64,000 nucleotides of DNA from Catelliglobosispora koreensis DSM 44566 (GTDB taxonomy: Bacteria; Actinomycetota; Actinomycetes; Mycobacteriales; Micromonosporaceae): the NCBI RefSeq assembly GCF_000379685.1, contig NZ_KB903250.1:248624-312623 (forward strand), written 5' to 3'. The notes beneath the pieces are model-generated. The model saw only the letters and a program-made list of their open reading frames with translations. It did no database searches and was not told the DNA's origin. Within the stretch, counting starts at the first letter, position 1, and every line of letters starts with the position of its first letter. The position numbers were made by a program, and so were the translations under genes. Shown here piece after piece: positions 6,586 to 20,538 of this stretch.

Positions 6586-7698
6586 TTAAACCTGGGGCGG
6601 TTGTTCCTGTAGACACTGATGGTGGTCGAAGGTGATGCTGGTGAGCCACGGGGCGCCGACGATCACGGCAGTGGGTGGTGTGACACCGGAGTAGCGCAAT
6701 AGGAATGTGCTAAACGACATGTCTTCGAAGAATTGATGGGATCGCATGTGCGGGAGGAACGCGGCGACCGTCCATTGTTCGGGGTTGTCTCTGGCGGTTT
6801 TCCAGCTCAGGTAGGTGCCGTCGGCTCTGCGGCCCCAGCACAGCAGCCCGCGCTTGCGTGGGTGGAAGCTCATGTACTGCGCGAGGCCAACATCATCGGC
6901 GGCGGCAGCCTGGTCGCCCTGGCGGAATGCGATGTCGCGGCTTTCGCACATATCGGGGCCGAAGATGGTGATATCGCAGACGGTTCCGGTGCCGCAGGCG
7001 TCGATGAAGGTCTTGTAGTCGTTCGGTAGAGCGGTTCCCAGCCGCGTTTCAATCGCTGGCCAGTTGTTATGCGTTTTCCATGTGGACGGTGGGCCGATGG
7101 CGACGATCAGCGCTGCACTGTGGTCTTGCGGCAGGGGCAAGCCTTCGGTCGCTTTCTCATTTGCCTTCGCTGGCTCAAAGACTCGCGGCCTTGCGGCGGG
7201 ATACGGTTTGAAGTGGGGCAGCCGTCCGGCATCAAGCTCATCCAAGACGAACTGTGCCATGCCATGCTTGTGGGTTTGCCACTGGGTGAAAGAGCGGTTT
7301 GATGTGACAACAGGCCAGTCGTTTGGATCATTGGATCCGGTGAGCCACCAGTAGCAGAAGCTGTTGCCGCTGGCCCACAACAGCACGCCTTCCGGCTCGG
7401 GATACAGCGAAAAAGGGAAGTTACCGTCCCCGCTTTCACGCCACCTCATGAAGGTGTCCAGGATGTGCGCCTTGGGGGCCAGGAAGTCGTTAGCTGGGTA
7501 GCCGAGCAGCCCCGGATAGGTGGGCAGGAGCTCGTTGCCGAACGTCCCTGCTGGCGCCTGGTCGACAAAGGTTTTGTAGTCGAAGGGAAGACTGATCCCC
7601 AAGCCATCTTCGACCGTGGCCCAGTCCACAGCCGCCCGGGTCGCATTTGGCGGGTTGCCAGTCACCCTCAAGAGCTGCTCGATGGCTTGAGTGGGCAT
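6586..7698 (-). CDS. Tandem SUKH (SMI1/KNR4) domain protein
   Basis: 370 residues with two copies of the SMI1/KNR4 fold. Copy 1 (about 25-150) has WATVEDGLGISLPFDYKTFV; copy 2 (about 205-345) has WPAIETRLGTALPNDYKTFI. Each is followed by the family's GLL-W / G-L-WG...SWWLT-type strand. SUKH proteins commonly act as immunity proteins against polymorphic or contact-dependent toxins, binding them directly; others are scaffolds. Start ATG 7698 has GGAG five bases upstream, whereas the in-frame TTG/ATG at 7764 lacks one. No cognate toxin gene lies beside it, so it may be an orphan immunity gene within the defence-rich island. Confidence 0.8.
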   Translation of the reverse strand: MPTQAIEQLLRVTGNPPNATRAAVDWATVEDGLGISLPFDYKTFVDQAPAGTFGNELLPTYPGLLGYPANDFLAPKAHILDTFMRWRESGDGNFPFSLYPEPEGVLLWASGNSFCYWWLTGSNDPNDWPVVTSNRSFTQWQTHKHGMAQFVLDELDAGRLPHFKPYPAARPRVFEPAKANEKATEGLPLPQDHSAALIVAIGPPSTWKTHNNWPAIETRLGTALPNDYKTFIDACGTGTVCDITIFGPDMCESRDIAFRQGDQAAAADDVGLAQYMSFHPRKRGLLCWGRRADGTYLSWKTARDNPEQWTVAAFLPHMRSHQFFEDMSFSTFLLRYSGVTPPTAVIVGAPWLTSITFDHHQCLQEQPPQV

Positions 7699-7859
7699 GG
7701 GATCTCCGGTAAGGCTCTGGCGCTCGATGGTGTCATCTGGGCGATGCACCAGCGCTTTCAACAAGTTGCGCTCGCTGCTGCTCGAGTACTACGCGGCCTT
7801 CCTAACCGCTTTTGCATCCTCAATGCGCTTGGAAGTTCATGGCCCTTTTCCAAGTGCGC

Positions 7860-8910: not shown

Positions 8911-8939
8911 TTGAGTGCCGTCTCCGGCGCCTTTAAACT
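8911..8939 (+). promoter_or_regulatory. Leaderless promoter of EACC1-CHAT operon
   Basis: A -35 box TTGAGT (8911-8916) and a -10 box TAAACT (8934-8939) are separated by 17 bp, the ideal sigma-70/HrdB spacing. The ATG at 8948 begins eight bases after the -10 box. There is no Shine-Dalgarno sequence in the gap, so the transcript probably starts at or within two bases of the ATG, giving a leaderless mRNA. Confidence 0.7.
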
Positions 8940-8947
8940 CTCGCACT

Positions 8948-9322
8948 ATGTTGATTCATTTAGATGTTCCTGCCGAGGTCGCGGATGATCTGTTTTCCGA
9001 GGACCTCGCAGGAATAGTGGGCAGTAACCGGTCCGCAGGGGAGGTGGTTCAGGCCGTTGTTACGGTCGTGGGACTTGCGGCGAACCTGGTGTCGATAGTC
9101 GTGGCGGTGGAAACGATGCCGACGGTTGTGCGGCGGCTGCTGACCTGGCTCCGGCGTTCTGGTGGTGGTGACGGGCCCCCAGTTCAGCACGAGATTCAGG
9201 TACAGAGCACGACCGGCAGAACGCAAATTGTGGTCGCCGATTCCTCAAAATCGGTCGACATTGTCGTGGTACAAATCCTGGATGTGTTAAACCAGCCTGA
9301 GGCTGGGGGCAATTCGGAGTGA
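8948..9322 (+). CDS. EACC1-like small protein of a CHAT conflict system
   Basis: 124 residues: a short polar N-terminus, a hydrophobic helix at about 35-60 (VVTVVGLAANLVSIVVAVET), then a small alpha-beta domain (EIQVQSTTGRTQIVVADSS). Size, layout and position directly before a CHAT protease gene fit EACC1, the effector-associated constant component described in actinobacterial and other multicellular-bacterial conflict systems. Assignment is by architecture, not by a search. Its stop overlaps the CHAT start by 4 bp (GTGA), indicating translational coupling. Start ATG 8948 follows a leaderless promoter; an upstream in-frame start at 8915 would overlap that promoter. Leu codons 5 (8960-8962) and near the C-terminus (9287-9289) are TTA. 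Confidence 0.6.
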   Translation: MLIHLDVPAEVADDLFSEDLAGIVGSNRSAGEVVQAVVTVVGLAANLVSIVVAVETMPTVVRRLLTWLRRSGGGDGPPVQHEIQVQSTTGRTQIVVADSSKSVDIVVVQILDVLNQPEAGGNSE

Positions 9323-11646
9323 CCGCGGATGGCCTCGACAACGCGTTCTCGGTGCTTAATTCGATCGCTGAGATGCTGGAAAACGATCCCATCACGACCA
9401 GGCAGGCATTATCTGACGCAGTTGACGCAGTCCGTGTAGCGATTGGACAGATAGAAGCCGAACTGAGCGGCAAAACAATGTCCACGATGACCGCACGGGC
9501 GTTCGGGATGAAGGCAGAACTCCATTTGCGACTTGGTGACCTTGACGGCGCCGTTGAATCCTTCGCGGAGGCAGACAGCCGCTACAAGCGCGCAGGGGCC
9601 AGTGAAGAATACGGCCTCTTCCTTCTGCAAGTCGCCGAAGCGCTTTCGTTCAACGGATTCTCAACTGAACTCGCGGAACGGTATGCAGAAGCCGCCAGCG
9701 ACATTCTCAACGACGTGGGTAGCGGCAACCTTCACCACGCTGACAGGTTGATGGCGAACCTTCGGCGGAAGCGCACAGGGACAGCCAGCCAGACCGAAAT
9801 TGATGCCTTGCGCCATGCAGTGGAGAAAGCGCCACCAGGCAGGCAACGAGGTGTCGCCGCGCAAGCTTTGGTCGTGGCGCTTCACAGCGTCCCAAACGTC
9901 AAGGATCACTTGCAGGAAATCCATGACACGGCCAACACTGCCTTTAGGGATCTGTGGAAACACGGGACAGTCGAAGATGCATGCACCGTCCTATTTGGCT
10001 TACATGACCTCTACAGGGATCAGCTGAAACTGCCTTCATGGGCCGGCAACGCCGTGTCTTCTGCTCTGGAGCGCGCTCGCGAAGCTGGACGGCTTGATCT
10101 TGAGCGGGACATGTTAGCCGTTGGCGCCGCTTTGCTCGACCAAGATGGCGAGCCTGCTGCGGCCTTGGCAATGGCGCTTGAAGGCGTTGCGCGCCATGAT
10201 GAACACCTCCTCATGACAAAGTCGTCTCACGTACGCGATGCACTTACCTACGCGGGCCAGAAGGCACGCGAGACTGCCCTGCACCTGGCGGTCGCTATGA
10301 ACAGCCCGGAACTCGCCGCTGAGCTGATCGAGTCCGCAAGACTTCAAGTGCTGCCAGATGACTTGGCCAACAGCGACGGACAATGGGCCGGCCGCCTGCT
10401 GGGACTGCGTCCTATCTCCGTTGGCGGGGAATCACGAGTTGCGAAACACTACCGCGCCGGCCGGGTTGGCGCCCCGCTTTCGCTTGAGACAGCGATCAAC
10501 CGCGTAGGTGGCGAGTCAGCATCATGGTGGGGTGTATGGGCCTTCCAGGGCGCGGTTCACTGGACGCTCCTACATCGCGGAGTCTGGTCATGCGGACGGA
10601 TCCCCGCCGAACCTGGTACTGAGCTACATGAACTGCTCCGCAAAGCCATTTTCGAAAACGATGACACGTCGATCGCCGACCGCATCACGGGAGACTGGTG
10701 CCGAAACGTGGCCTCCGAGGAATTCCTGGCAGCCGACCTCGGCGAGTTACTTATCCCGCCACGCCTGCGGGCAGCAGTCCTGGCAGCCGAGGAAGCACAG
10801 CCCATATCCCTGGTCCTAGCGGGGAACCTCCATGCGATCTTGCCCATCTGCCTCCTTGGTGTGCGGGAGAACCCGTTCATCCAGGCCGTACGCCTAATCG
10901 AATCGGCGGTCCTGCGGGTAGCACCACCGGCTGTCATCCTTGAGCAGATCTCCAATGCCTACAGCCAAAGCGCGGGGCCGCACGAAATCATCGTGGCGTG
11001 CGTCGATCCGCGCGGCGATCTTAAGAACAGCCGTACAGCTCCCGACGGCGCTAGGGTCGTGCTGGGCAGCCCAACAGAAGGCCGAAAACCGGCCAGCCGT
11101 GAAAACCTTATTGCCGCACTCGAAACCAACGCGGGCGAGGCCGGCATCTTCTACTACTCCGGGCACGCGATATCGCCCGGGCGTGACGGGCTGGGCGGCG
11201 ACTACGAAGACGGCCTCGTGCTTTCCAACGGCGAAACGTTATCAGCCGCAGACCTTTTCGGCCCTGACGGGGGTTCATTCAACTTCCCGCCACGAAGTAT
11301 CATTAGTGCGTGTTCCTCATCCGGAGCGGCAGGAGGTGCAGCCGGTGAGTGGCTTGGCCTCGCGGCGGCACTGCTCTGGCGAGGAAGCCGGCAGATCATC
11401 GCAACAAACTGGAGCATCTGGGATACCCGCTTCACGACAAGGTTTGACCTCGCTCTGGCCATGCGGCTTCGGGAAGCCTCCGATGTGGCATGGGCGCTTC
11501 GCGAAGCTCAACTCGCCGCACTCCGCGAGTGGAGAGCGAGTCAGCACGACTTCACAAACTTCCAAGCTCCGGGACTGCCAGGCTCCTCAGCAAACTTGGC
11601 GCTTCCATTGATATGGGCTTCCTACTGCTGCGTAGGCACCAAGTAG
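9319..11646 (+). CDS. TPR-like helical protein with C-terminal CHAT protease
   Basis: 775 residues. Residues 1 to about 350 are helical with TPR-like repeats (GDLDGAVESFAEADSRYKRA). A linker domain follows, and a CHAT (caspase-HetF-associated TPR) peptidase domain occupies about 510-775. The catalytic dyad is His616 in FYYSGHA and Cys665 in SIISACSSSG. CHAT proteases such as TPR-CHAT of type III-E CRISPR and bacterial gasdermin activators are cleaving effectors released by partner sensing. The start GTG overlaps the EACC1-like stop, so the two form one operon. No gasdermin or other evident substrate is adjacent. At least four TTA codons are present (9409, 10114, 10747, 11239). Confidence 0.85.
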   Translation: MTADGLDNAFSVLNSIAEMLENDPITTRQALSDAVDAVRVAIGQIEAELSGKTMSTMTARAFGMKAELHLRLGDLDGAVESFAEADSRYKRAGASEEYGLFLLQVAEALSFNGFSTELAERYAEAASDILNDVGSGNLHHADRLMANLRRKRTGTASQTEIDALRHAVEKAPPGRQRGVAAQALVVALHSVPNVKDHLQEIHDTANTAFRDLWKHGTVEDACTVLFGLHDLYRDQLKLPSWAGNAVSSALERAREAGRLDLERDMLAVGAALLDQDGEPAAALAMALEGVARHDEHLLMTKSSHVRDALTYAGQKARETALHLAVAMNSPELAAELIESARLQVLPDDLANSDGQWAGRLLGLRPISVGGESRVAKHYRAGRVGAPLSLETAINRVGGESASWWGVWAFQGAVHWTLLHRGVWSCGRIPAEPGTELHELLRKAIFENDDTSIADRITGDWCRNVASEEFLAADLGELLIPPRLRAAVLAAEEAQPISLVLAGNLHAILPICLLGVRENPFIQAVRLIESAVLRVAPPAVILEQISNAYSQSAGPHEIIVACVDPRGDLKNSRTAPDGARVVLGSPTEGRKPASRENLIAALETNAGEAGIFYYSGHAISPGRDGLGGDYEDGLVLSNGETLSAADLFGPDGGSFNFPPRSIISACSSSGAAGGAAGEWLGLAAALLWRGSRQIIATNWSIWDTRFTTRFDLALAMRLREASDVAWALREAQLAALREWRASQHDFTNFQAPGLPGSSANLALPLIWASYCCVGTK

Positions 11647-11665: not shown

Positions 11666-12838
11666 CTATCCCGTCGTATCGAATACGTCGGCCTGTTCAA
11701 GCCACACCGATCGACTAGTTTCGATGGCGTCTTGCCATAACACAGGTGCCGCAGTGATCGAATCCAGCACAGCGCCTGTGGCGCGCAGCTTGTCTGCGAG
11801 GCCAGGTTCTATATGGGCTGTGGCTGCGAGGACCGAGGCAAGGAGCGATTGTGTGATGAGCTCTGCAGTCTTGACGTCCAGACCGAGGATCGACTTCTCG
11901 GCCCCTGGGAGGATCGCCTCAGCTGCACCGATGTCGCTGGGATTGGCGATCGCTTCGGCCCAAGCTTCAACCGCTTGTGGATCCCGGCGCAGTCGCTTGG
12001 CCACTGCTGCAAGAAGTTGCGGGCCAAAGTATTCGGCGTCTCCTGTCTGCATCCGTGCGGTGAGCTGTAGGTAGCAGATGGGAAGGGCTTGGGGCGGTGC
12101 GACGGCGACTGTGAGCGCAATTGTTACAGGCCATCCCCAGTGGTGAGCAGTACCGGACGAAAGGTCGGCGCGCAGGCGGTTGTACATCGCGCGGACTTGT
12201 GCGTCGTCTGGGATGGTTTCCGCCAGCAGCACCACACCCCAGCCGCTGATGAGGTGTTCGGTCGGAATTTCGTTCCATCGGCTGTCCAGGTTGGATCGTT
12301 GTTCGCTGAGCCACTGGCCGATTTGCTCTGTTGTGGCGAACTTCGCCAGGAGTGGGATTGTCGGCGGTGTGTTGTTGGTCTGATGTTTACGCAGGCTTTC
12401 GAACAAGGTTTGCAGGTTTTGCGGATCGTTGGGGCTGTCGTTGAGGTACCAGCTGAGCACGAGTTCTTGTTCGAGTAGTGATGGGTCGGCTTGGATCTGG
12501 TCTCGTAGTTGCTGGGCTAGTTCAGGATTCAGGTGTGCGACGGTGGCGAGGCCGGCCCAAACTTGCTTGAACTCATCGCTGTCAGCCATTCGGGAGGCGA
12601 GCCGCTTTATCCAGCCTGGTTCTAGGTGCTGATTGAGTTTGCTCCAGTTTGCGGCTAGCAGGGTGGCGAGGGTTGTGTCGACTTCGCCGAAGACGTTGAC
12701 GAGTGCGGCTCCTACTGGTGGTTGGGTTCCGTAGTTTTCTGTAAGGCCGTCGAGTAGGGATAAATCCCCAAGCAGGAGCATGATGGTCCAGGCGACTCTG
12801 CCAGCTTGCCTTTGAGCTGGCCGTTCGCGTTTCACCAC
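11666..12838 (-). CDS. Helical protein downstream of the TIR gene
   Basis: About 390 residues, almost entirely helical by composition (Leu, Ala, Gln, Trp rich), with stretches such as ELAQQLRDQIQADPSLLEQE and LLAAVAKRLRRDPQAVEAW that look like HEAT- or TPR-type repeats. I recognise no family. GTG 12838 has AGGTG at 6-nt spacing; the frame opens at GTG 12847 directly after a stop, and ATG 12781 is another option. It is the third gene of a leftward run (degenerate TIR, TIR, this), about 108 bp after the TIR stop, and converges on the CHAT gene with 19 bp between stops. Base composition is more AT-rich than neighbours. It may be a regulator or adaptor of the TIR pair, which is inference from position only. 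Confidence 0.7.
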   Translation of the reverse strand: MVKRERPAQRQAGRVAWTIMLLLGDLSLLDGLTENYGTQPPVGAALVNVFGEVDTTLATLLAANWSKLNQHLEPGWIKRLASRMADSDEFKQVWAGLATVAHLNPELAQQLRDQIQADPSLLEQELVLSWYLNDSPNDPQNLQTLFESLRKHQTNNTPPTIPLLAKFATTEQIGQWLSEQRSNLDSRWNEIPTEHLISGWGVVLLAETIPDDAQVRAMYNRLRADLSSGTAHHWGWPVTIALTVAVAPPQALPICYLQLTARMQTGDAEYFGPQLLAAVAKRLRRDPQAVEAWAEAIANPSDIGAAEAILPGAEKSILGLDVKTAELITQSLLASVLAATAHIEPGLADKLRATGAVLDSITAAPVLWQDAIETSRSVWLEQADVFDTTG

Positions 12839-12946
12839 GGTGATCACCTATCCCGTTTGTGCCCGCAGATAGGTGGCAGTGCGCGAACCGCGTGGTCCCG
12901 ACCGGCAGAGATGGCTGGCTTTTGCGATCATCGCGGCTGTCACTGG

Positions 12947-15208
12947 TTATGAGCCGACTCGGGTGGCAAGATCCAGAGCGAAGGCACGCTCCAGCCGGGC
13001 AGCGGCTTCTTTCGCCAGCGCGGCGTTGGTGACGCAGCCATCGCAGAACGGAGTTCGCTGCACCATCCCCTCCGACGTCACGATGAGCAGGTGGCCGTCA
13101 GTGGTGGTTGCCAGATCACGGACGGCACCAACCGCAGTCCCCACAACCACCGCCGGGGTCAGGTTCGCCGTGGCGTGCAAGATGACGGTCCCGTTGGAAT
13201 AAGCCGTCGCGAAGGCGTCCCCGTTGAGGTTCAACGCGGCAGAAGTGCCCACTATTGACCGGTGCTCGGGCTCGGCAATCGCCTGCCAGGTCCAGGATGG
13301 CGCCTGTGCTGGGTCGGCCCCGGTGAGATGCCACATGGTGCCGCAGGTTCCCACACCGGAGCCTTGTCCTACCACGACGATGGTCTTTCCGTTGGGAGCC
13401 AAGGCGATGCGGTTTGCGCCGGTACCACAACTGGTGCCGCCCAAGCGCTGCACCGACCTACCCGCAACAAGAAACATGTCGCCGTAACGGTTCCCCGCAA
13501 GGAGGACCTCGGTTCCGGGGATGATGGCAGCGCTCGCGAGCCCGGCGATGTCACTGAGCCGGCCGGTGACCGCAGCCTGAGCCACGCTGACCGTCAGTAG
13601 GTCGCCGTCGAGACATGGGAGGTAGAACGTTGCCGGGTTCACGAAAACCGGGCGGCCAAACCGGCATCCTGGCGCGTCAACTGGTTTGGCTGGTCCGTCC
13701 TCCACCAGCGGAACGACCCAGAGTCGCTCGCCTGTCACGGCCGCGACCGAACCATCGCTGGCTCCGCCACCGAGCCTGAGTGCATCGGGCACAGTGCGCG
13801 TCGCCGTTACGTTTCCGTCGGTGGTGTCGAGCTTCTTCAGACCGCTCTGGCCAACCACCCACCACATGCGCGGGTCCGCCGACGGCAGCAGGGCGGTGTA
13901 AGACTCGGCCGGATCGTTGCGCAACGTGGTGGCATCGCTGAGCCGCCACGTGACCGCCCAGCGGGTGCCCAGTGCCCACACGCGTGAAGAGTCCGTGCTC
14001 CACGCGACATCCACGAGGGCGCCGGGAGCCCCGCGCAGGCCGAACCGCACGACACCGGTGCTCAAGTCGGCCACCTGCACTCCGGATCCGGCGGCGGCTG
14101 CTAGGAGCCGGCCGTCTGGTGACAGCTGGATGGCCACCGGCGGGACAGTGAAATGGACTGTGCGCCAGAGCTGGCCCGATCTGTTGACCAGGACTGTGCC
14201 GGTTTGGCTGAGTGGGCCTAGCGTCAGTTCTGCTGGCCAGGGCTGCTGGTGTTCTACGGCCACCGAGCCTATGGCAGTAGCCGCACGCACATCCTGGGTC
14301 GTCGGCCGTGTCCATGACTTTCCGGCACTGTCGGTCACAACGATGTCGGTGGCTATAGGACGCTTGGCAAAGCGAATATCGCCAGCAGAAGAATCAACTT
14401 TAAAAGCATCATCTGGTACGCGGTGAGCCAGCGCTCTGGTGATGACGCTGGCGTTGGCGGCCGACTCGTCATCGCCTAGTTTGGCTGCCAGGAACAGGCC
14501 TTGGTAGATACTTTTAGAGATCTCGTCCTGCCGGGCACGTTCCTCCAAATAGGTGGCTGCCTGCACCTCGTTCGCGTATCCCACCGCCACATTGCGTGCC
14601 GCATACCACGAAGACAAACCGAATCCGCCAATGACCAGCACGACTGCGGCCATTGCCATCGCCGCGCGGCGTCTCGTGCGGGAGCGGCTATCACGCAGAT
14701 AATCCAGCTCATAAGGCTCGGCCTGCGGCGGAAGCCGAAGCCCGCGCACCATCACCCGGCGCCTGGCTCTGCTGGCAAGCCCTCGCCTCCGACGGCCGCT
14801 CTGCTGCCAGTCCCTTGCGGCTCGCCGAAGCTCGATGCGGCCCGCCCTGTGCACGTCGTCGAGCGTAAGCTGACCCTCATTCCCTTCCACGACAAGCACT
14901 TCGAGCAACCGGTCCGCGGCAGCGGCTGGGTCCTCGCCGACGTAACACTCCAGCACCCGAGTGCCGAACTGGCGCGCGTGTTTAACCTCGGACTGGCACT
15001 CATCCGAAGCGTCGAACGCCACCGACCGGCAAGCGAAAACCGCTGTGGCGGCTTCGATTTCCTCGAGGATTTTGACTTTCCACTCAATCGTGGGCGGGAT
15101 ATCGTCCTCATCGATCCAAACAGGAACGTGACGGGCCTCGAGCTCCGTCTTGAGCCGTATGACCCACGGCCGTTCCTTGCGGCTGTATGAAATGAAAACG
15201 TGCTGCAT
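12947..15208 (-). CDS. TIR-transmembrane-beta-propeller protein
   Basis: 753 residues. An N-terminal TIR domain (about 1-125) starts with HVFISYSRKER and has a Cys71-x-x-Glu74 motif (SDECQSEVKH), matching the position of the catalytic Glu of TIR NADases. A basic linker leads to one membrane helix at 182-203. The rest, about 255-720, is a WD40/YVTN-like propeller (IQLSPDGRLLAAAAGSGVQV). A CDGC motif at 722-725 and a helical Arg/Glu-rich tail end the protein. The TIR side is probably cytoplasmic. TIR domains in defence usually deplete NAD+ or make cADPR isomers. ATG 15208 has AGGGAG at 8 nt; it lies 5 bp after the stop of the upstream paralogue, so they are co-transcribed. Confidence 0.85.
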   Translation of the reverse strand: MQHVFISYSRKERPWVIRLKTELEARHVPVWIDEDDIPPTIEWKVKILEEIEAATAVFACRSVAFDASDECQSEVKHARQFGTRVLECYVGEDPAAAADRLLEVLVVEGNEGQLTLDDVHRAGRIELRRAARDWQQSGRRRRGLASRARRRVMVRGLRLPPQAEPYELDYLRDSRSRTRRRAAMAMAAVVLVIGGFGLSSWYAARNVAVGYANEVQAATYLEERARQDEISKSIYQGLFLAAKLGDDESAANASVITRALAHRVPDDAFKVDSSAGDIRFAKRPIATDIVVTDSAGKSWTRPTTQDVRAATAIGSVAVEHQQPWPAELTLGPLSQTGTVLVNRSGQLWRTVHFTVPPVAIQLSPDGRLLAAAAGSGVQVADLSTGVVRFGLRGAPGALVDVAWSTDSSRVWALGTRWAVTWRLSDATTLRNDPAESYTALLPSADPRMWWVVGQSGLKKLDTTDGNVTATRTVPDALRLGGGASDGSVAAVTGERLWVVPLVEDGPAKPVDAPGCRFGRPVFVNPATFYLPCLDGDLLTVSVAQAAVTGRLSDIAGLASAAIIPGTEVLLAGNRYGDMFLVAGRSVQRLGGTSCGTGANRIALAPNGKTIVVVGQGSGVGTCGTMWHLTGADPAQAPSWTWQAIAEPEHRSIVGTSAALNLNGDAFATAYSNGTVILHATANLTPAVVVGTAVGAVRDLATTTDGHLLIVTSEGMVQRTPFCDGCVTNAALAKEAAARLERAFALDLATRVGS

Positions 15209-15213
15209 TCCCC

Positions 15214-17427
15214 TCACTCCCTGCCAAGCGAAGCGCCACAGACACGAATACCGAGACTATCGCGAGTCTCTATGTCTATATACGACAGTTGCCGTGAAGT
15301 GAAGCAGCGGTCGAATCGCTCCCGAAATGTCCGTAGCAGGCCCTCGTCCGTCGCGCACCCGTCACATTCGGGCGCCCGCCACGTGTGCCCGGCCGCCGTA
15401 GCCACGAGTGGCCCGTCGCCCCACCCGACGGCCGTCACCGCCGCCCCGCCAGGCACCGCCCAGGGCACCACCACGGTCCACTCACTGGTGCCTTTCTCGA
15501 TGATCGCGACATTGCCCCAGGAGTCACCCGCAACGATCTGTGTGCCGTCACCTCGTACTGCCACCGCGGTCACCTCGCCCTTGAACCCCGTCATCGTCGT
15601 CTCCGGAATGGACCCGGACGCCGAGATCACGACCGTCCGGCCGTCGGCCCTAGCCGACACGCCAGCCTTAGCCGACCCGGCGGGCACCGCCACGGCCACC
15701 GGCGCTTCAGGTAACCGCCAAACGCTATGTAGCCCATCACTGACACAGCTCACGAGAGCTGCCTCCGGGTACACCAAAATTCTGGCTGGGCGGATCATGT
15801 CTTTGCAGACAGTGCCTAGCGGGATAGCACCAGGCAGGTAGAAGACCTCACCGCGGCGATCGGAGCTGAGGATTACTACGCGGTCGCCAGTCGTCCAAAT
15901 GAGACTTCGTGGCAGGTACGGGACCACGATGCCCGTCGGCCGCAACGGTGCTCCGGCTGCGGCAACCCAGTACTGGCCATCAGCTCCTGGAACCATTACC
16001 TGGCGGCCATCCGGCGAGATACCCCCACCAACCGCGCGCAGCGCGCCCGAAGGCACGGTCAGCACCCGCACACCATCGTTTACCAAAACGATCTGACGAT
16101 CGGCCGTTTCCGCCAAGACAAGCACCGCACCCGTTTCGGTGACCGTCAGGTCAGCAACAGACGCGAACGTCCCTAACGCCGCAGCGGTGCCGCTCTGTAG
16201 GTCGAGTCTGATCACCGCGTTGTCAAAACTGATCGCGAACCCGACGTCGCGATTCGCTAAACGGGCCTGGCTCAACCGCTTATCGCTGACAGGTTTGACC
16301 TCTCTGGTGCCGATGTCGATGCTTACCGCTCCAGCCGCACCGACGGCAAGCGCCATACTTCCGTCCGGTGACGCCGCAAGCTGAAGGTAAAGCGCTGGCA
16401 ACGGTTTGGCCCACAGCACTTCCCCGGCAGGCATCTGCAGCAACGCGAACGAACTCGCTGCCCCCTCTCGGTAGATCACCGCCGCTTGCCGCCCTCCATT
16501 AAGCAGCACATACGAGCTGGCATCCGGATAGGTGTAGATAGTGCCGACGCTCCAAGGCAGCGCAAGGGCTTCCCGAAGGGTTCGGCGAGCCAATTCCTGC
16601 TGTGCCACACTGCCGTGCAGGAGCAGCGAGGCAGCCTGCGCCGCGCTCCAATCAGGAATCTCCTTTAGCAGCTCCGGGTCACCGATCGTGGCGATAGCCG
16701 CCCGGTTATCCAGCTCGCGCTGGGCCAGTCGCGGTACCAAATTTACGGCAGTGCAAATGGCAAGGACAGCGGCGATCACGGCTCCCGTACCCCAAAGCAG
16801 CCTGCGACGAGACCGTTTGCGCGCCTTTCGCAGTGATGCCTCGATGAACTGCTGGGCCGGCCAGGGCTGCAAATCCCATCGGTGCCACTGCAGCTGGGTG
16901 AAGCCCCGCATGAGGTGGCGCATCTCGTGAACGAGGCGCAGGTCATCAATCAGACGGCTCTCATCGGCCAGGTCGCTCTTCCAAGCGTGCACCGCTTCGG
17001 CGAACTGCCGCTCCAGCGTGTACTCGGCCCGGTCAAAGGCAATGCCCGCAAGGATCGCCCCGATGCCGCCTTCCGGCCCGGGATCGCCGGGCAGCCAGGT
17101 AACCTGGTTAATCTCGAATAGACGCGCGAGATTCAGCTGTTCGTTTTCGGTGAGGGGCCGTCCCACGTCCCCCGCGCTCACTGCCTCCAGCCGCACCGCG
17201 ACGATCGGGCCACCACGGCGCACCTGTGCTATCCAGTCGGGGTCAGTCAGCGCCTGCAGAGATAGCAGCACTACTTGCAGGTCCTTTTCGGACCTACCAT
17301 CACCGCGTACGCCCACCCCTGCCTGCGCGAGACGTGTGGCGAGCTCAGTCGCGGCTGGTGAATCGGCCGGATGATGGACGAGGGTTACCAAAACGGTGTT
17401 GCTTCGGCTGTCCCGGGGTTTGGCCAC
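15214..17427 (-). CDS. Degenerate-TIR-like/TM/beta-propeller protein
   Basis: About 737 residues with the same plan as the next gene. The N-terminal alpha-beta domain (TVLVTLVHHPADSPAATELA, then DLQVVLLSLQAL and PIVAVRL) looks TIR-like but lacks the SYS-R box and the C-x-x-E motif. A basic stretch precedes a membrane helix at about 210-231, followed by a propeller with repeats like LAASPDGSMALAVGAAG. The tail again has CDGC and a helical end. Probably an inactive, sensing partner of the TIR protein; that is inference. The frame opens at TTG 17466; GTG 17427 is equally possible, and neither has an RBS. It contains at least one TTA codon. Confidence 0.75.
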   Translation of the reverse strand: MAKPRDSRSNTVLVTLVHHPADSPAATELATRLAQAGVGVRGDGRSEKDLQVVLLSLQALTDPDWIAQVRRGGPIVAVRLEAVSAGDVGRPLTENEQLNLARLFEINQVTWLPGDPGPEGGIGAILAGIAFDRAEYTLERQFAEAVHAWKSDLADESRLIDDLRLVHEMRHLMRGFTQLQWHRWDLQPWPAQQFIEASLRKARKRSRRRLLWGTGAVIAAVLAICTAVNLVPRLAQRELDNRAAIATIGDPELLKEIPDWSAAQAASLLLHGSVAQQELARRTLREALALPWSVGTIYTYPDASSYVLLNGGRQAAVIYREGAASSFALLQMPAGEVLWAKPLPALYLQLAASPDGSMALAVGAAGAVSIDIGTREVKPVSDKRLSQARLANRDVGFAISFDNAVIRLDLQSGTAAALGTFASVADLTVTETGAVLVLAETADRQIVLVNDGVRVLTVPSGALRAVGGGISPDGRQVMVPGADGQYWVAAAGAPLRPTGIVVPYLPRSLIWTTGDRVVILSSDRRGEVFYLPGAIPLGTVCKDMIRPARILVYPEAALVSCVSDGLHSVWRLPEAPVAVAVPAGSAKAGVSARADGRTVVISASGSIPETTMTGFKGEVTAVAVRGDGTQIVAGDSWGNVAIIEKGTSEWTVVVPWAVPGGAAVTAVGWGDGPLVATAAGHTWRAPECDGCATDEGLLRTFRERFDRCFTSRQLSYIDIETRDSLGIRVCGASLGRE

Positions 17428-17466
17428 GTGACCATTTTGGAGCCGGGACCTAGCGCCGCGACTCAA

Positions 17467-18800: not shown

Positions 18801-19964
18801 TTAACCGGCGTTGGTGGAAGCCACTCCGGTTGACTGCGGTTCGTCGAGAAGTGATCTGACGAGAATTAGCGAGATGAGCTCATCCACGGTTTTCCCGAGT
18901 TTGCGGACGTTGGAGGACTTGTCAGCGAGCGGGTACAAGAGGCTCTTGAGATCGCCGAGGTCCAGCTGTTTTTCCTCGTCTTGCGTGAGCTTGACGAAGC
19001 GGTCCTCGGCTAGTTTGTCAATTACCCGAATGATCTCGTCGCGGGAAAGTGGCTGGAAGCCAATTAGGGAGTCGAACCGGGAGTAGAGCGCGTCGCCGAA
19101 CGCGTCGCGGATTTCCTTCTCCGAACCGTAATTGGAGGTGCAGATGATCAGCGACGGACCGAGGTGCACGCTGTAGTTCTTATCTTCGAAGATGCCACTG
19201 TCGAAAAGCTGGTAAAAGGCGCTGTGGAAGACGGGGTTTGCCTTGTCGAACTCGTCGATCAGGATGACGCCGGATTCGCGGTCCAGAAGGTCGTGGGCGA
19301 ACGACGGCTCGGAATGTGTCCCGCCGAACAGGTATGAAGCGAACTTGTCATTGTGGAACATGGAGAACTGTTTGCGCATGAGTGTGCCGCCGAGGAGCCC
19401 ATTGATGAACTGGGCGGTCTCGGTTTTGCCGACGCCGGAGGGACCGTAAAACATCAGCACGACGGGCTTGGCTTGTCGTGCTGTGGTTAGCGGGTACAGC
19501 GCTGCGAGGAGTTTTTGCATCACTGTCGCCTGCCCGACGAGGTGGTCAGCGAAGCCGTCACGGAAGTGTATGAGCGTCTCTCTAGTCACCGCGGGATATT
19601 CATACCGCTTTAGGACGGTGGCGGGGAAAGCCCGTTGCAACTGCGCCAGTGCGTGGGCCGGTGGGTTGTGCAGATGTACGTGCTTCGGGTTGATGGAACG
19701 AATCAGCCCTGCAAAGTTGGTGATCACGTGCTCGCTGAGACTCGCATAGTCGCTCGACTGCGCGACCATGCGCTTGGGCCGTTTTGGCTGCAGATCGTCT
19801 AGTTCGCTCTCGTTATGCGCAGGGGCGATGATCTTGAAAAGGCGGCGGGCTTCGTCACGCGCGTAGACGATGTCCAGGAGGCTTTCGTCCGCCTGCTTTC
19901 CGAGCTGCTCCTCAAACCAGGACAGCGGCCCGCAGTAGACGGTGACCTTGGTGTCACCCGGCAT
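18801..19964 (-). CDS. AAA+ ATPase of ClpA/B-type (AAA_2)
   Basis: 387 residues. About 130 N-terminal residues of unknown fold precede one AAA+ module: Walker A GPSGVGKT at 174-181, Walker B VILIDEFD at 233-240, sensor region IICTSNYG at about 273-280 and an Arg finger in SRFD (about 296). The text DEFDKA-P-F---FYQLFD-G matches the second AAA domain of ClpB/ClpA and torsin-like proteins, which remodel or unfold proteins. It lacks the Clp N-domain and a second AAA module. Start ATG 19964 overlaps the upstream gene by 11 bp (an earlier in-frame start at 20000 overlaps more). It is the effector-like half of a two-gene unit in the island. Confidence 0.85.
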   Translation of the reverse strand: MPGDTKVTVYCGPLSWFEEQLGKQADESLLDIVYARDEARRLFKIIAPAHNESELDDLQPKRPKRMVAQSSDYASLSEHVITNFAGLIRSINPKHVHLHNPPAHALAQLQRAFPATVLKRYEYPAVTRETLIHFRDGFADHLVGQATVMQKLLAALYPLTTARQAKPVVLMFYGPSGVGKTETAQFINGLLGGTLMRKQFSMFHNDKFASYLFGGTHSEPSFAHDLLDRESGVILIDEFDKANPVFHSAFYQLFDSGIFEDKNYSVHLGPSLIICTSNYGSEKEIRDAFGDALYSRFDSLIGFQPLSRDEIIRVIDKLAEDRFVKLTQDEEKQLDLGDLKSLLYPLADKSSNVRKLGKTVDELISLILVRSLLDEPQSTGVASTNAG

Positions 19965-20538
19965 GTTCGACGCCCGCCAAAAGTACGTCGTACACATCAA
20001 GGAACGTTTCGGCCACCGCGCCGGGGCCGTCTAGCAGTTCCAATGCAGTTACAGGTTCCGCATTGGTGCCGCCGGACATCTCGGCCTGCATGCCAAGCCC
20101 GTCTTCAGTAGTGCTCCCAACAAGGATGCCGTGAAAGACAAGCCGCATCCGGCCAAGGTCGGTCAGTCCGTAATTGTTCCGGAATGCCCTGAAGTTGAAA
20201 CGCAGCACGCACTTCGAACCCGTCGCCATTTCTTCGCCAACGAGTTCGTAATAACCCTTCGCACTTTCAAGTGCCTCATCCAGCCGGGCCAAATCGACGC
20301 CCAACTCCTCGGTCTTCGCAATGACCATGTATGGCGTGTACATCTTCATATAGGCCATCGAATCCTTTGACGCTGTCACCCGCAGACCGCGCAGCCGCCT
20401 GATCCGGTCATCGCCTTCGACCTGCGCAAGGTAATCGGTAAGGATTGTGTTAGACAGCGTTTTACTGAGAATGCTCTTCCCGGCCCTGGACACATCGATA
20501 CCAGCACCCGTCTCCGCGGAAGCACCGATGGACGGCAA
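19954..20538 (-). CDS. Partner protein of the AAA+ ATPase, unknown family
   Basis: 194 residues from the only available in-frame start, a TTG. Readable, protein-like codons (for example AAKFSW) continue upstream of it until a stop 12 codons earlier, with no ATG or GTG. The N-terminus may therefore be truncated or a non-standard start used. Conserved-looking parts are SNTILTDYLAQVEGDDRIRR, YTPYMVIAKTEELG and FNFRAFRNNYGLTDLGRMRL. It vaguely resembles the DUF6414 group, but I would not assert this. No membrane segment. It overlaps the AAA+ gene by 11 bp and is co-translated, so it probably acts as adaptor or substrate selector. Confidence 0.65.
   Translation of the reverse strand: MPSIGASAETGAGIDVSRAGKSILSKTLSNTILTDYLAQVEGDDRIRRLRGLRVTASKDSMAYMKMYTPYMVIAKTEELGVDLARLDEALESAKGYYELVGEEMATGSKCVLRFNFRAFRNNYGLTDLGRMRLVFHGILVGSTTEDGLGMQAEMSGGTNAEPVTALELLDGPGAVAETFLDVYDVLLAGVEHAG

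What the first reader, a model, noticed from the sequence alone, without database searches (positions are those of the whole stretch)
11666..17427. Candidate undescribed system: intact TIR paired with a degenerate TIR, both with TM and propeller, plus a helical protein
Two adjacent genes share one unusual plan (TIR or TIR-like domain, basic linker, one membrane helix, WD40-like propeller, terminal CDGC and helical tail). Only the second has the SYSRKER and C-x-x-E signatures of a NADase. The first may be the sensor, the second the effector, and the third gene (helical repeats) an adaptor. The 5-bp gap between the two TIR genes suggests co-translation. TIR proteins in bacteria usually act by depleting NAD+; a membrane-spanning pair with extracytoplasmic propellers would sense something outside the cell or at the wall.
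Basis: partly seen in the sequence, partly recalled or inferred. Interest (0 to 1): 0.85.

Follow-up and report, generated by a model that had tools for sequence, protein, structure and literature searches.

The report
Paired membrane TIR receptors with propellers
Two coupled bacterial genes encode a matched pair of membrane proteins, one with a working-looking NAD+-cutting TIR domain and one with a broken-down TIR, and the same pair recurs in distantly related bacteria, so it looks like an undescribed two-chain sensor that may switch on a cell-suicide or alarm enzyme.

Summary
The two genes (12947-15208 and 15214-17427, minus strand) encode an intact TIR and a pseudo-TIR; each has a basic linker, one membrane helix and a WD40-like propeller. 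The pair recurs in the same order in ten further loci: Catellatospora, another Actinomycetota genome, and Coriobacteriales, Clostridia, Erysipelotrichaceae, Christensenella and Oscillospiraceae. Of 15 loci fetched by the TIR N-terminus alone, the nine with TIR, one membrane helix and a propeller all have the pseudo-TIR gene immediately upstream; the other six do not. Full-length profile matches reach E=7.5e-19 and 3.5e-25, the two families diverge in step (r=0.98), and both are under purifying selection. Every TIR keeps S-x-x-C-x-x-E; no pseudo-TIR does. No Pfam, PADLOC or NCBIfam model covers the pseudo-TIR protein, and no paper found describes the pair.

The third, helical gene is not part of the system: it is the orphan C-terminus of a large NACHT protein, absent from the other loci.

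Best explanation: a propeller-out two-chain receptor in which the pseudo-TIR gates a NAD+-consuming TIR. Enzyme activity, ligand and biological role are untested.

The parts
15214..17427 (-). Gene 1: pseudo-TIR, linker, membrane helix, propeller (737 aa from GTG 17427; a TTG at 17466 is an alternative start)
17089..17400 (-). Pseudo-TIR domain of gene 1 (about residues 10-113); no BB loop/alphaB, no C-x-x-E
   Evidence: profile-profile match to TIRs E=2e-6, E=2.6e-4 with two sequences
16744..16800 (-). Membrane helix of gene 1 (residues 210-228)
   Evidence: hydropathy 2.18, net charge +6 before and -1 after
15373..16530 (-). WD40-like propeller region of gene 1 (about residues 300-685)
   Evidence: blade number not settled
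15206..15220 (-). Junction of genes 1 and 2: stop TGA 15216-15214, 5 bp, ATG 15208; alternative GTG 15217 overlaps the stop (GTGA)
   Evidence: same GTGA overlap in Catellatospora
12947..15208 (-). Gene 2: TIR, linker, membrane helix, propeller (753 aa from ATG 15208)
14939..15208 (-). TIR domain of gene 2 (about residues 1-90)
   Evidence: Pfam TIR_2 E=6e-17
14987..14989 (-). Codon of Glu74, predicted catalytic residue in SDECQSE
   Evidence: S-x-x-C-x-x-E kept in all ten TIRs and in L179 (STPCQNE)
14609..14665 (-). Membrane helix of gene 2 (residues 182-200)
   Evidence: hydropathy 1.97, net charge +3 before and -1 after
13049..14356 (-). WD40-like propeller region of gene 2 (about residues 285-720)
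   Evidence: blade number not settled
11666..12847 (-).
   Evidence: E=7e-47 to the last 370 residues of a 1760-aa NACHT protein; absent from other loci

Best explanation
The two genes form a self-contained two-chain membrane receptor. Both chains sit N-terminus in, C-terminus out: TIR or pseudo-TIR in the cytoplasm, propeller outside. At rest the TIR is inactive, as a monomer or in a locked heteromer. A change sensed by the paired propellers (a ligand, envelope damage, or a surface component of a phage or another cell) re-orients the chains through their membrane helices. The pseudo-TIR, which has lost its own BB loop, alphaB and catalytic Glu but keeps the rest of the fold, then holds the BB loop of the real TIR and completes its active site. 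The TIR cleaves NAD+ with Glu74, giving growth arrest, death or an ADP-ribose-type signal. Shown here: architecture, homology of the pseudo-TIR to TIRs, recurrence and co-inheritance of the pair, purifying selection on both genes, kept and lost catalytic motif. Supported by sequence only: topology. Inferred: NADase activity, heteromer, direction of control, ligand, biological role.
For: TIR_2 with catalytic motif; motif in all ten TIRs and in no gene-1 protein. Pseudo-TIR matches TIRs at E=2e-6. Pair in eleven loci including the window, over two phyla, always gene 1 then gene 2. Full-length homology E=7.5e-19 and 3.5e-25. Mirror-tree r=0.984, Mantel p=2e-4, no third shared gene across distant loci. 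Pseudo-TIR domain under purifying selection, dN/dS 0.07 and 0.24. More positive charge before than after the helix in 18 of 18 proteins; six Cys after the helix in each actinobacterial protein, all twelve positions conserved at 35-39% identity. A neighbouring TIR fixes the BB loop and adds to the active site in a known TIR assembly (PMC10474274). Defence-type neighbours in the window.
Against: No biochemistry. AF2 models are low-confidence (pLDDT 51 and 44), so no interface could be examined. The conserved Cys do not extend to Bacillota. In Bacillota loci the neighbours look metabolic, not defensive. Profile signal for the pseudo-TIR is moderate, and the loss of the BB-loop region could equally make it an inhibitor.
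Confidence: 0.5

Rival explanations
1. Antidote model: the pseudo-TIR protein is a built-in inhibitor that caps the TIR, and its loss or displacement, not its activation, frees the TIR, like an immunity or antitoxin partner encoded first in the operon.
For: Gene 1 comes first and is translationally coupled; it lacks the BB-loop region, so it could cap a TIR strand.
Against: Two loci have a broken gene 1 (in-frame TGA in L179, frameshift in L012) and an intact TIR gene, which should be toxic if gene 1 were an antidote; sequence errors are possible. Matched propellers on both chains suggest shared sensing.
Confidence: 0.22
2. Signal-maker model: the TIR makes an ADP-ribose-type messenger that acts on a separate effector, as in Thoeris, rather than depleting NAD+ itself.
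For: Best weak family hits of the TIR are SAVED-TIR, ThsB and ThcB4.
Against: No effector gene is shared among the loci; the adjacent CHAT gene of the window is missing at Catellatospora.
Confidence: 0.2
3. Scaffold model: neither TIR cuts NAD+ in the cell; the pair is an ordinary envelope or stress sensor that signals by protein contacts.
For: Metabolic neighbours in Bacillota; TIRs can act as pure interaction domains (PMC7075850).
Against: The C-x-x-E motif is kept in every gene-2 protein while gene 1 has lost it, which implies selection for catalysis in one chain only.
Confidence: 0.13
4. One reading: the helical protein (11666-12847) is an adaptor of the TIR pair.
For: Same strand, 99 bp downstream; open frame of 393 codons with a possible ribosome-binding sequence before it.
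Against: It is the C-terminal fifth of a NACHT protein with a sharp break; the other homologs found lie in ORFs of 1729-1967 aa; the rest of that protein is not in the window and no close match lies elsewhere in the genome; absent from other loci of the pair.
Confidence: 0.03

Closest known systems
Animal Toll-like and IL-1 receptors
   Same: Single-pass membrane proteins with a cytoplasmic TIR and an outside sensor; IL-1 receptors work as heterodimers (PMC7075850). Likeness of working only.
   Different: Opposite order (TIR at the N-terminus), propeller instead of LRR or Ig ectodomain, predicted enzyme activity, and a partner TIR that has lost the BB loop. Not homologous as receptors.
Cyanobacterial WRAP/TIR-STAND operon (Dunin-Horkawicz 2014, cited in PMC9218822)
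   Same: Two coupled genes joining WD40 propellers and a TIR in a proposed prokaryotic immune system.
   Different: There both proteins carry a STAND NTPase; here no STAND was detected in either protein, both chains have a membrane helix, and one TIR is degenerate.
nSTAND1-TM-WD40 proteins of actinobacteria (e.g. L082)
   Same: Linker, membrane helix and WD40 propeller region; gene-1 profiles hit the linker-helix region at E=1.5e-4 and the whole protein at 2.7e-15.
   Different: Cytoplasmic part is an NTPase, single gene, no TIR pair.
PknD-type kinase-TM-propeller receptors
   Same: Cytoplasmic enzyme, one membrane helix, outside propeller (PknD layout from general knowledge). Gene-1 propeller matches designed Pizza propellers, which derive from the PknD sensor domain (that origin is my recollection).
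   Different: Kinase instead of TIR; no inactive partner.
Thoeris ThsB, SAVED-TIR, SPARTA (TIR-APAZ/pAgo), Cat1
   Same: TIR with catalytic Glu motif; weak profile matches of the TIR domain to ThsB, SAVED-TIR and Cat1.
   Different: Their partner or sensor domains (SLOG/Sir2, SAVED, APAZ/Ago, CARF) were not detected in the pair; no membrane helix plus propeller plan.

Membership tests
TIR domain (Pfam TIR_2), gene 2 | Profile score above gathering cut-off | tested here: met
   62.7 bits against cut-off 28; all seven members of A7 match
TIR NADase, gene 2 | Catalytic Glu in the C-x-x-E region after strand C | tested here: met
   SDECQSE, Glu74; kept in all ten TIRs
TIR NADase, gene 2 | NAD+ cleavage | not testable with these tools
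   needs an enzyme assay
TIR domain, gene 1 N-domain | TIR-like fold and profile similarity | tested here: met
   E=2e-6, shuffles 0.09 or worse; no Pfam hit; low-confidence model has the expected order of strands and helices
TIR NADase, gene 1 | BB loop and catalytic Glu | tested here: not met
   region missing; no C-x-x-E in any of eight
Proposed family: paired pseudo-TIR/TIR membrane propeller system | Gene-1 homolog immediately upstream of TIR-helix-propeller gene | tested here: met
   nine of nine loci found by TIR N-terminus, plus one found by gene-1 profile
Proposed family | Propellers outside the cell | tested here: inconclusive
   charge pattern in 18 of 18 proteins, paired conserved Cys in actinobacterial pairs; no experiment
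Thoeris | ThsA-type effector gene and ThsB/ThcB4-level match of the TIR protein | tested here: not met
   ThcB4 20.7 bits against cut-off 220; ThsB1 E=6.5e-4 over the TIR only; no effector gene shared among loci
CBASS SAVED-TIR | SAVED domain | tested here: not met
   match covers only TIR positions 15-63 of the 404-position model
STAND/NLR-type TIR or WD40 proteins | STAND NTPase domain | tested here: not met
   no NTPase hit in either protein up to E=1
NACHT protein (third gene) | NACHT domain | tested here: not met
   only the C-terminal 375 residues are present

The most novel reading that the evidence does not exclude
A bacterial two-chain transmembrane TIR receptor conserved from Actinomycetota to Bacillota: paired outside propellers sense an extracellular cue and assemble an obligate TIR/pseudo-TIR heteromer in which the inactive chain completes the NADase site of the active one. 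In working it would be a bacterial counterpart of Toll/IL-1 receptor heterodimers with the enzyme built in.
Probability: 0.4. Interest if true: 0.88.

Novelty: new variant of a known kind. Interest (0 to 1): 0.76.

Why it matters
The bacterial TIR immune systems found in the literature read here sense nucleotides, nucleic acids or phage proteins inside the cell. A conserved pair of membrane TIR proteins with apparent outside sensors would mean that bacteria couple events at the cell surface to TIR enzymes, which is the logic of animal Toll and IL-1 receptors. The paired active and inactive TIR also gives a simple two-part system for asking how an inactive TIR controls an active one.

Tried and rejected
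Helical protein as third component: rejected (NACHT C-terminal remnant). CHAT gene as obligatory effector of the pair: rejected, absent at Catellatospora. Thoeris, CBASS SAVED-TIR and STAND membership: tested, not met. Ordinary WD40 repeat similarity as the only link between loci: rejected by full-length profile matches and conserved gene order. Pseudo-TIR as a decaying duplicate: rejected by purifying selection. Searches of plasmids, phages and viral contigs with these proteins gave no relatives. Actinobacterial TIR-TM proteins with other outer parts (L137, L138, L141) belong elsewhere: I saw no pseudo-TIR partner next to them. Two-sequence profiles found only Catellatospora within the family; the decisive relatives came as an unplanned hit in a control for the TIR-likeness test.
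Full report
WHAT IS THERE. The window lies in an actinobacterial genome of the same family as Catellatospora. On the minus strand, gene 1 (15214-17427, 737 aa from GTG) is followed after 5 bp by gene 2 (12947-15208, 753 aa from ATG); a GTG at 15217 would overlap the stop of gene 1 by four bases. Gene 2 starts with a clear TIR_2 domain (E=6e-17) with FISYSRKE and SDECQSE, Glu74 being the predicted catalytic residue. Gene 1 has no Pfam TIR hit. Both have a basic linker, one hydrophobic helix (182-200 and 210-228), a WD40-like propeller region and a tail with P-x-CDGC-x-T.

IS THE FIRST N-DOMAIN A TIR? Yes, a reduced one. With two sequences its profile matches about 30 actinobacterial TIR segments at E=2.6e-4 (shuffled columns 0.11-0.63). 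With ten sequences and a broader TIR set it matches at E=2e-6 over 124 columns (20 shuffles 0.09 or worse). The stretch between strands B and C that carries the BB loop and helix alphaB is missing, and so is C-x-x-E. The low-confidence AF2 model gives the order beta-alpha-beta-beta-alpha-beta, as expected for a TIR without alphaB.

DOES THE PAIR RECUR? In 355 genomes of the family only Catellatospora tritici has it (G136, L008/L009), in the same order, with a GTGA overlap and 33-39% identity, with a transposase gene just upstream. A control for the TIR test then gave an unplanned hit: the N-domain of gene 1 matched, at E=2.5e-5, a family of proteins in loci that had been fetched from about 85,000 species only by N-terminal peptides of the TIR. 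Of those 15 loci, nine encode TIR plus one membrane helix and propeller (Catellatospora L009, Coriobacteriales L012, Solobacterium L014, Clostridia L015 and L017, Erysipelotrichaceae L016 and L021, Christensenella L020, Oscillospiraceae L022; the TIR gene of L017 and gene 1 of L022 are incomplete). All nine have a gene-1 homolog immediately upstream. The other six are TIRs of other builds and have none. The reverse test also works: the gene-1 profile found one new locus in 159 Actinomycetota genomes (G1057, L179), and a full TIR-helix-propeller gene with STPCQNE follows directly. Full-length profile comparison across phyla gives E=7.5e-19 for gene 1 (672 columns) and 3.5e-25 for gene 2 (661 columns). 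Distances within the two families correlate at r=0.984 (Mantel p=2e-4, ten loci; pieces of two broken gene-1 copies were combined for distances only), and no third gene is shared except between close relatives. In the Bacillota and Coriobacteriales loci the last codons of gene 1 carry the Shine-Dalgarno-like sequence of gene 2, a further sign of coupling.

SELECTION. For two pairs of related genomes, dN/dS of genes 1 and 2 is 0.11/0.12 and 0.32/0.29, against 0.03-0.04 and 0.13-0.15 for neighbouring genes. The pseudo-TIR domain is the most constrained part of gene 1 (0.07 and 0.24). So the degenerate domain is maintained, and the pair evolves two to four times faster than its neighbours. These are simple Nei-Gojobori estimates on two pairs.

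TOPOLOGY. In all 18 proteins tested the 25 residues before the helix carry more net positive charge than the 25 after. In the window and Catellatospora, each of the four proteins has exactly six Cys after the helix, at matching positions in each orthologous pair, although identity is only 35-39%. That fits disulfides outside the cell. The Bacillota proteins do not keep these Cys, so the point is limited to the actinobacterial pairs. Together this favours N-in, propeller-out; it is not proof.

THE THIRD GENE. Residues 17-391 of the helical protein (11666-12847) align to the last 370 residues of large NACHT proteins of Streptomyces plasmids (E=7e-47), and relatives lie in ORFs of 1729-1967 aa in the same bacterial family. 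Homology starts abruptly, nothing just upstream matches in any frame, no rest of that gene is in the window, the only other NACHT-type match in the genome is a distant one, and no other locus of the pair has it. It is best read as the stump of a NACHT gene. It may still be expressed, but it is not an adaptor of this system.

NEIGHBOURHOOD. Next to the pair lie Dodola genes dolA/dolB (18801-20538; PADLOC E=7.6e-55 and 1.8e-135, the dolA match starting at profile position 61). Convergent with the NACHT stump, a small single-helix protein is followed by a TPR-CHAT protein (8915-11646), which resembles the EACC1-caspase two-gene system of Kaur et al. 2020 (PMC7159879), although the small protein has no EACC1 hit in Pfam. 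This looks like a defence island. The Bacillota copies, in contrast, sit among genes that look metabolic.

HOW IT MOST LIKELY WORKS. In a known TIR NADase assembly the BB loop of one TIR is held by loops of its neighbour, which also adds to the active site (PMC10474274). A pseudo-TIR that keeps the rest of the fold but has no BB loop of its own could complete the site of one TIR and end the chain there. With two propellers outside, a cue that rearranges them would bring this about. This is inference from anatomy. Two loci with a broken gene 1 and an intact TIR gene (in-frame TGA in L179, frameshift in L012) speak mildly against gene 1 being an antidote, if they are not sequence errors.

NOVELTY. 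No Pfam, PADLOC or NCBIfam model covers gene 1 or the pair, and searches of the held open-access library found no description. Most subscription papers and most preprints are not in that library, so prior description cannot be excluded. The parts are known kinds; the combination, a coupled active/inactive TIR pair with membrane helices and propellers across two phyla, appears new.

Noticed in passing
window 18801-20538 (-): Dodola anti-phage genes dolA and dolB; the dolA match begins only at position 61 of the 258-position profile, so its N-terminus seems to be missing.
   Followed up: partly
window 8915-11646 (+): Small single-helix protein overlapping a TPR-CHAT protease gene; looks like the EACC1-caspase two-gene system, but without a Pfam EACC1 match.
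   Followed up: partly
window 11666-12847 (-): Orphan C-terminal 375 residues of a NACHT protein, with a sharp break just downstream of the TIR gene; marks a past rearrangement.
   Followed up: yes
L179:4979-7207 (-) and L012:5550-8005 (+): Gene 1 is broken (in-frame TGA; frameshift) while the TIR gene is intact. If real, this bears on whether gene 1 is an antidote.
   Followed up: partly
L137:2678-4804, L138:2726-4735, L141:2184-4574: Other actinobacterial proteins with TIR, one membrane helix and different C-terminal parts (WD40; PKD/Fn3-like; periplasmic-binding-protein-like, the last two judged by eye): membrane TIR proteins may be a wider class.
   Followed up: no
whole genome G000: The genome has 23 TIR_2 matches; some actinobacterial genomes in the same search have 25 or more.
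   Followed up: no
L073:7764-9101 and L074:8340-9635: TIR proteins with hydrophobic helices on both sides of the TIR and a shared multi-helix C-terminus, a different membrane-TIR build.
   Followed up: no
window 6586-7764 (-): Protein with a C-terminal SUKH (SMI1/KNR4) domain, a fold common among immunity proteins.
   Followed up: no
L014/L016 and L015/L017: Both genes of the pair evolve two to four times faster (dN/dS) than their flanking genes.
   Followed up: partly
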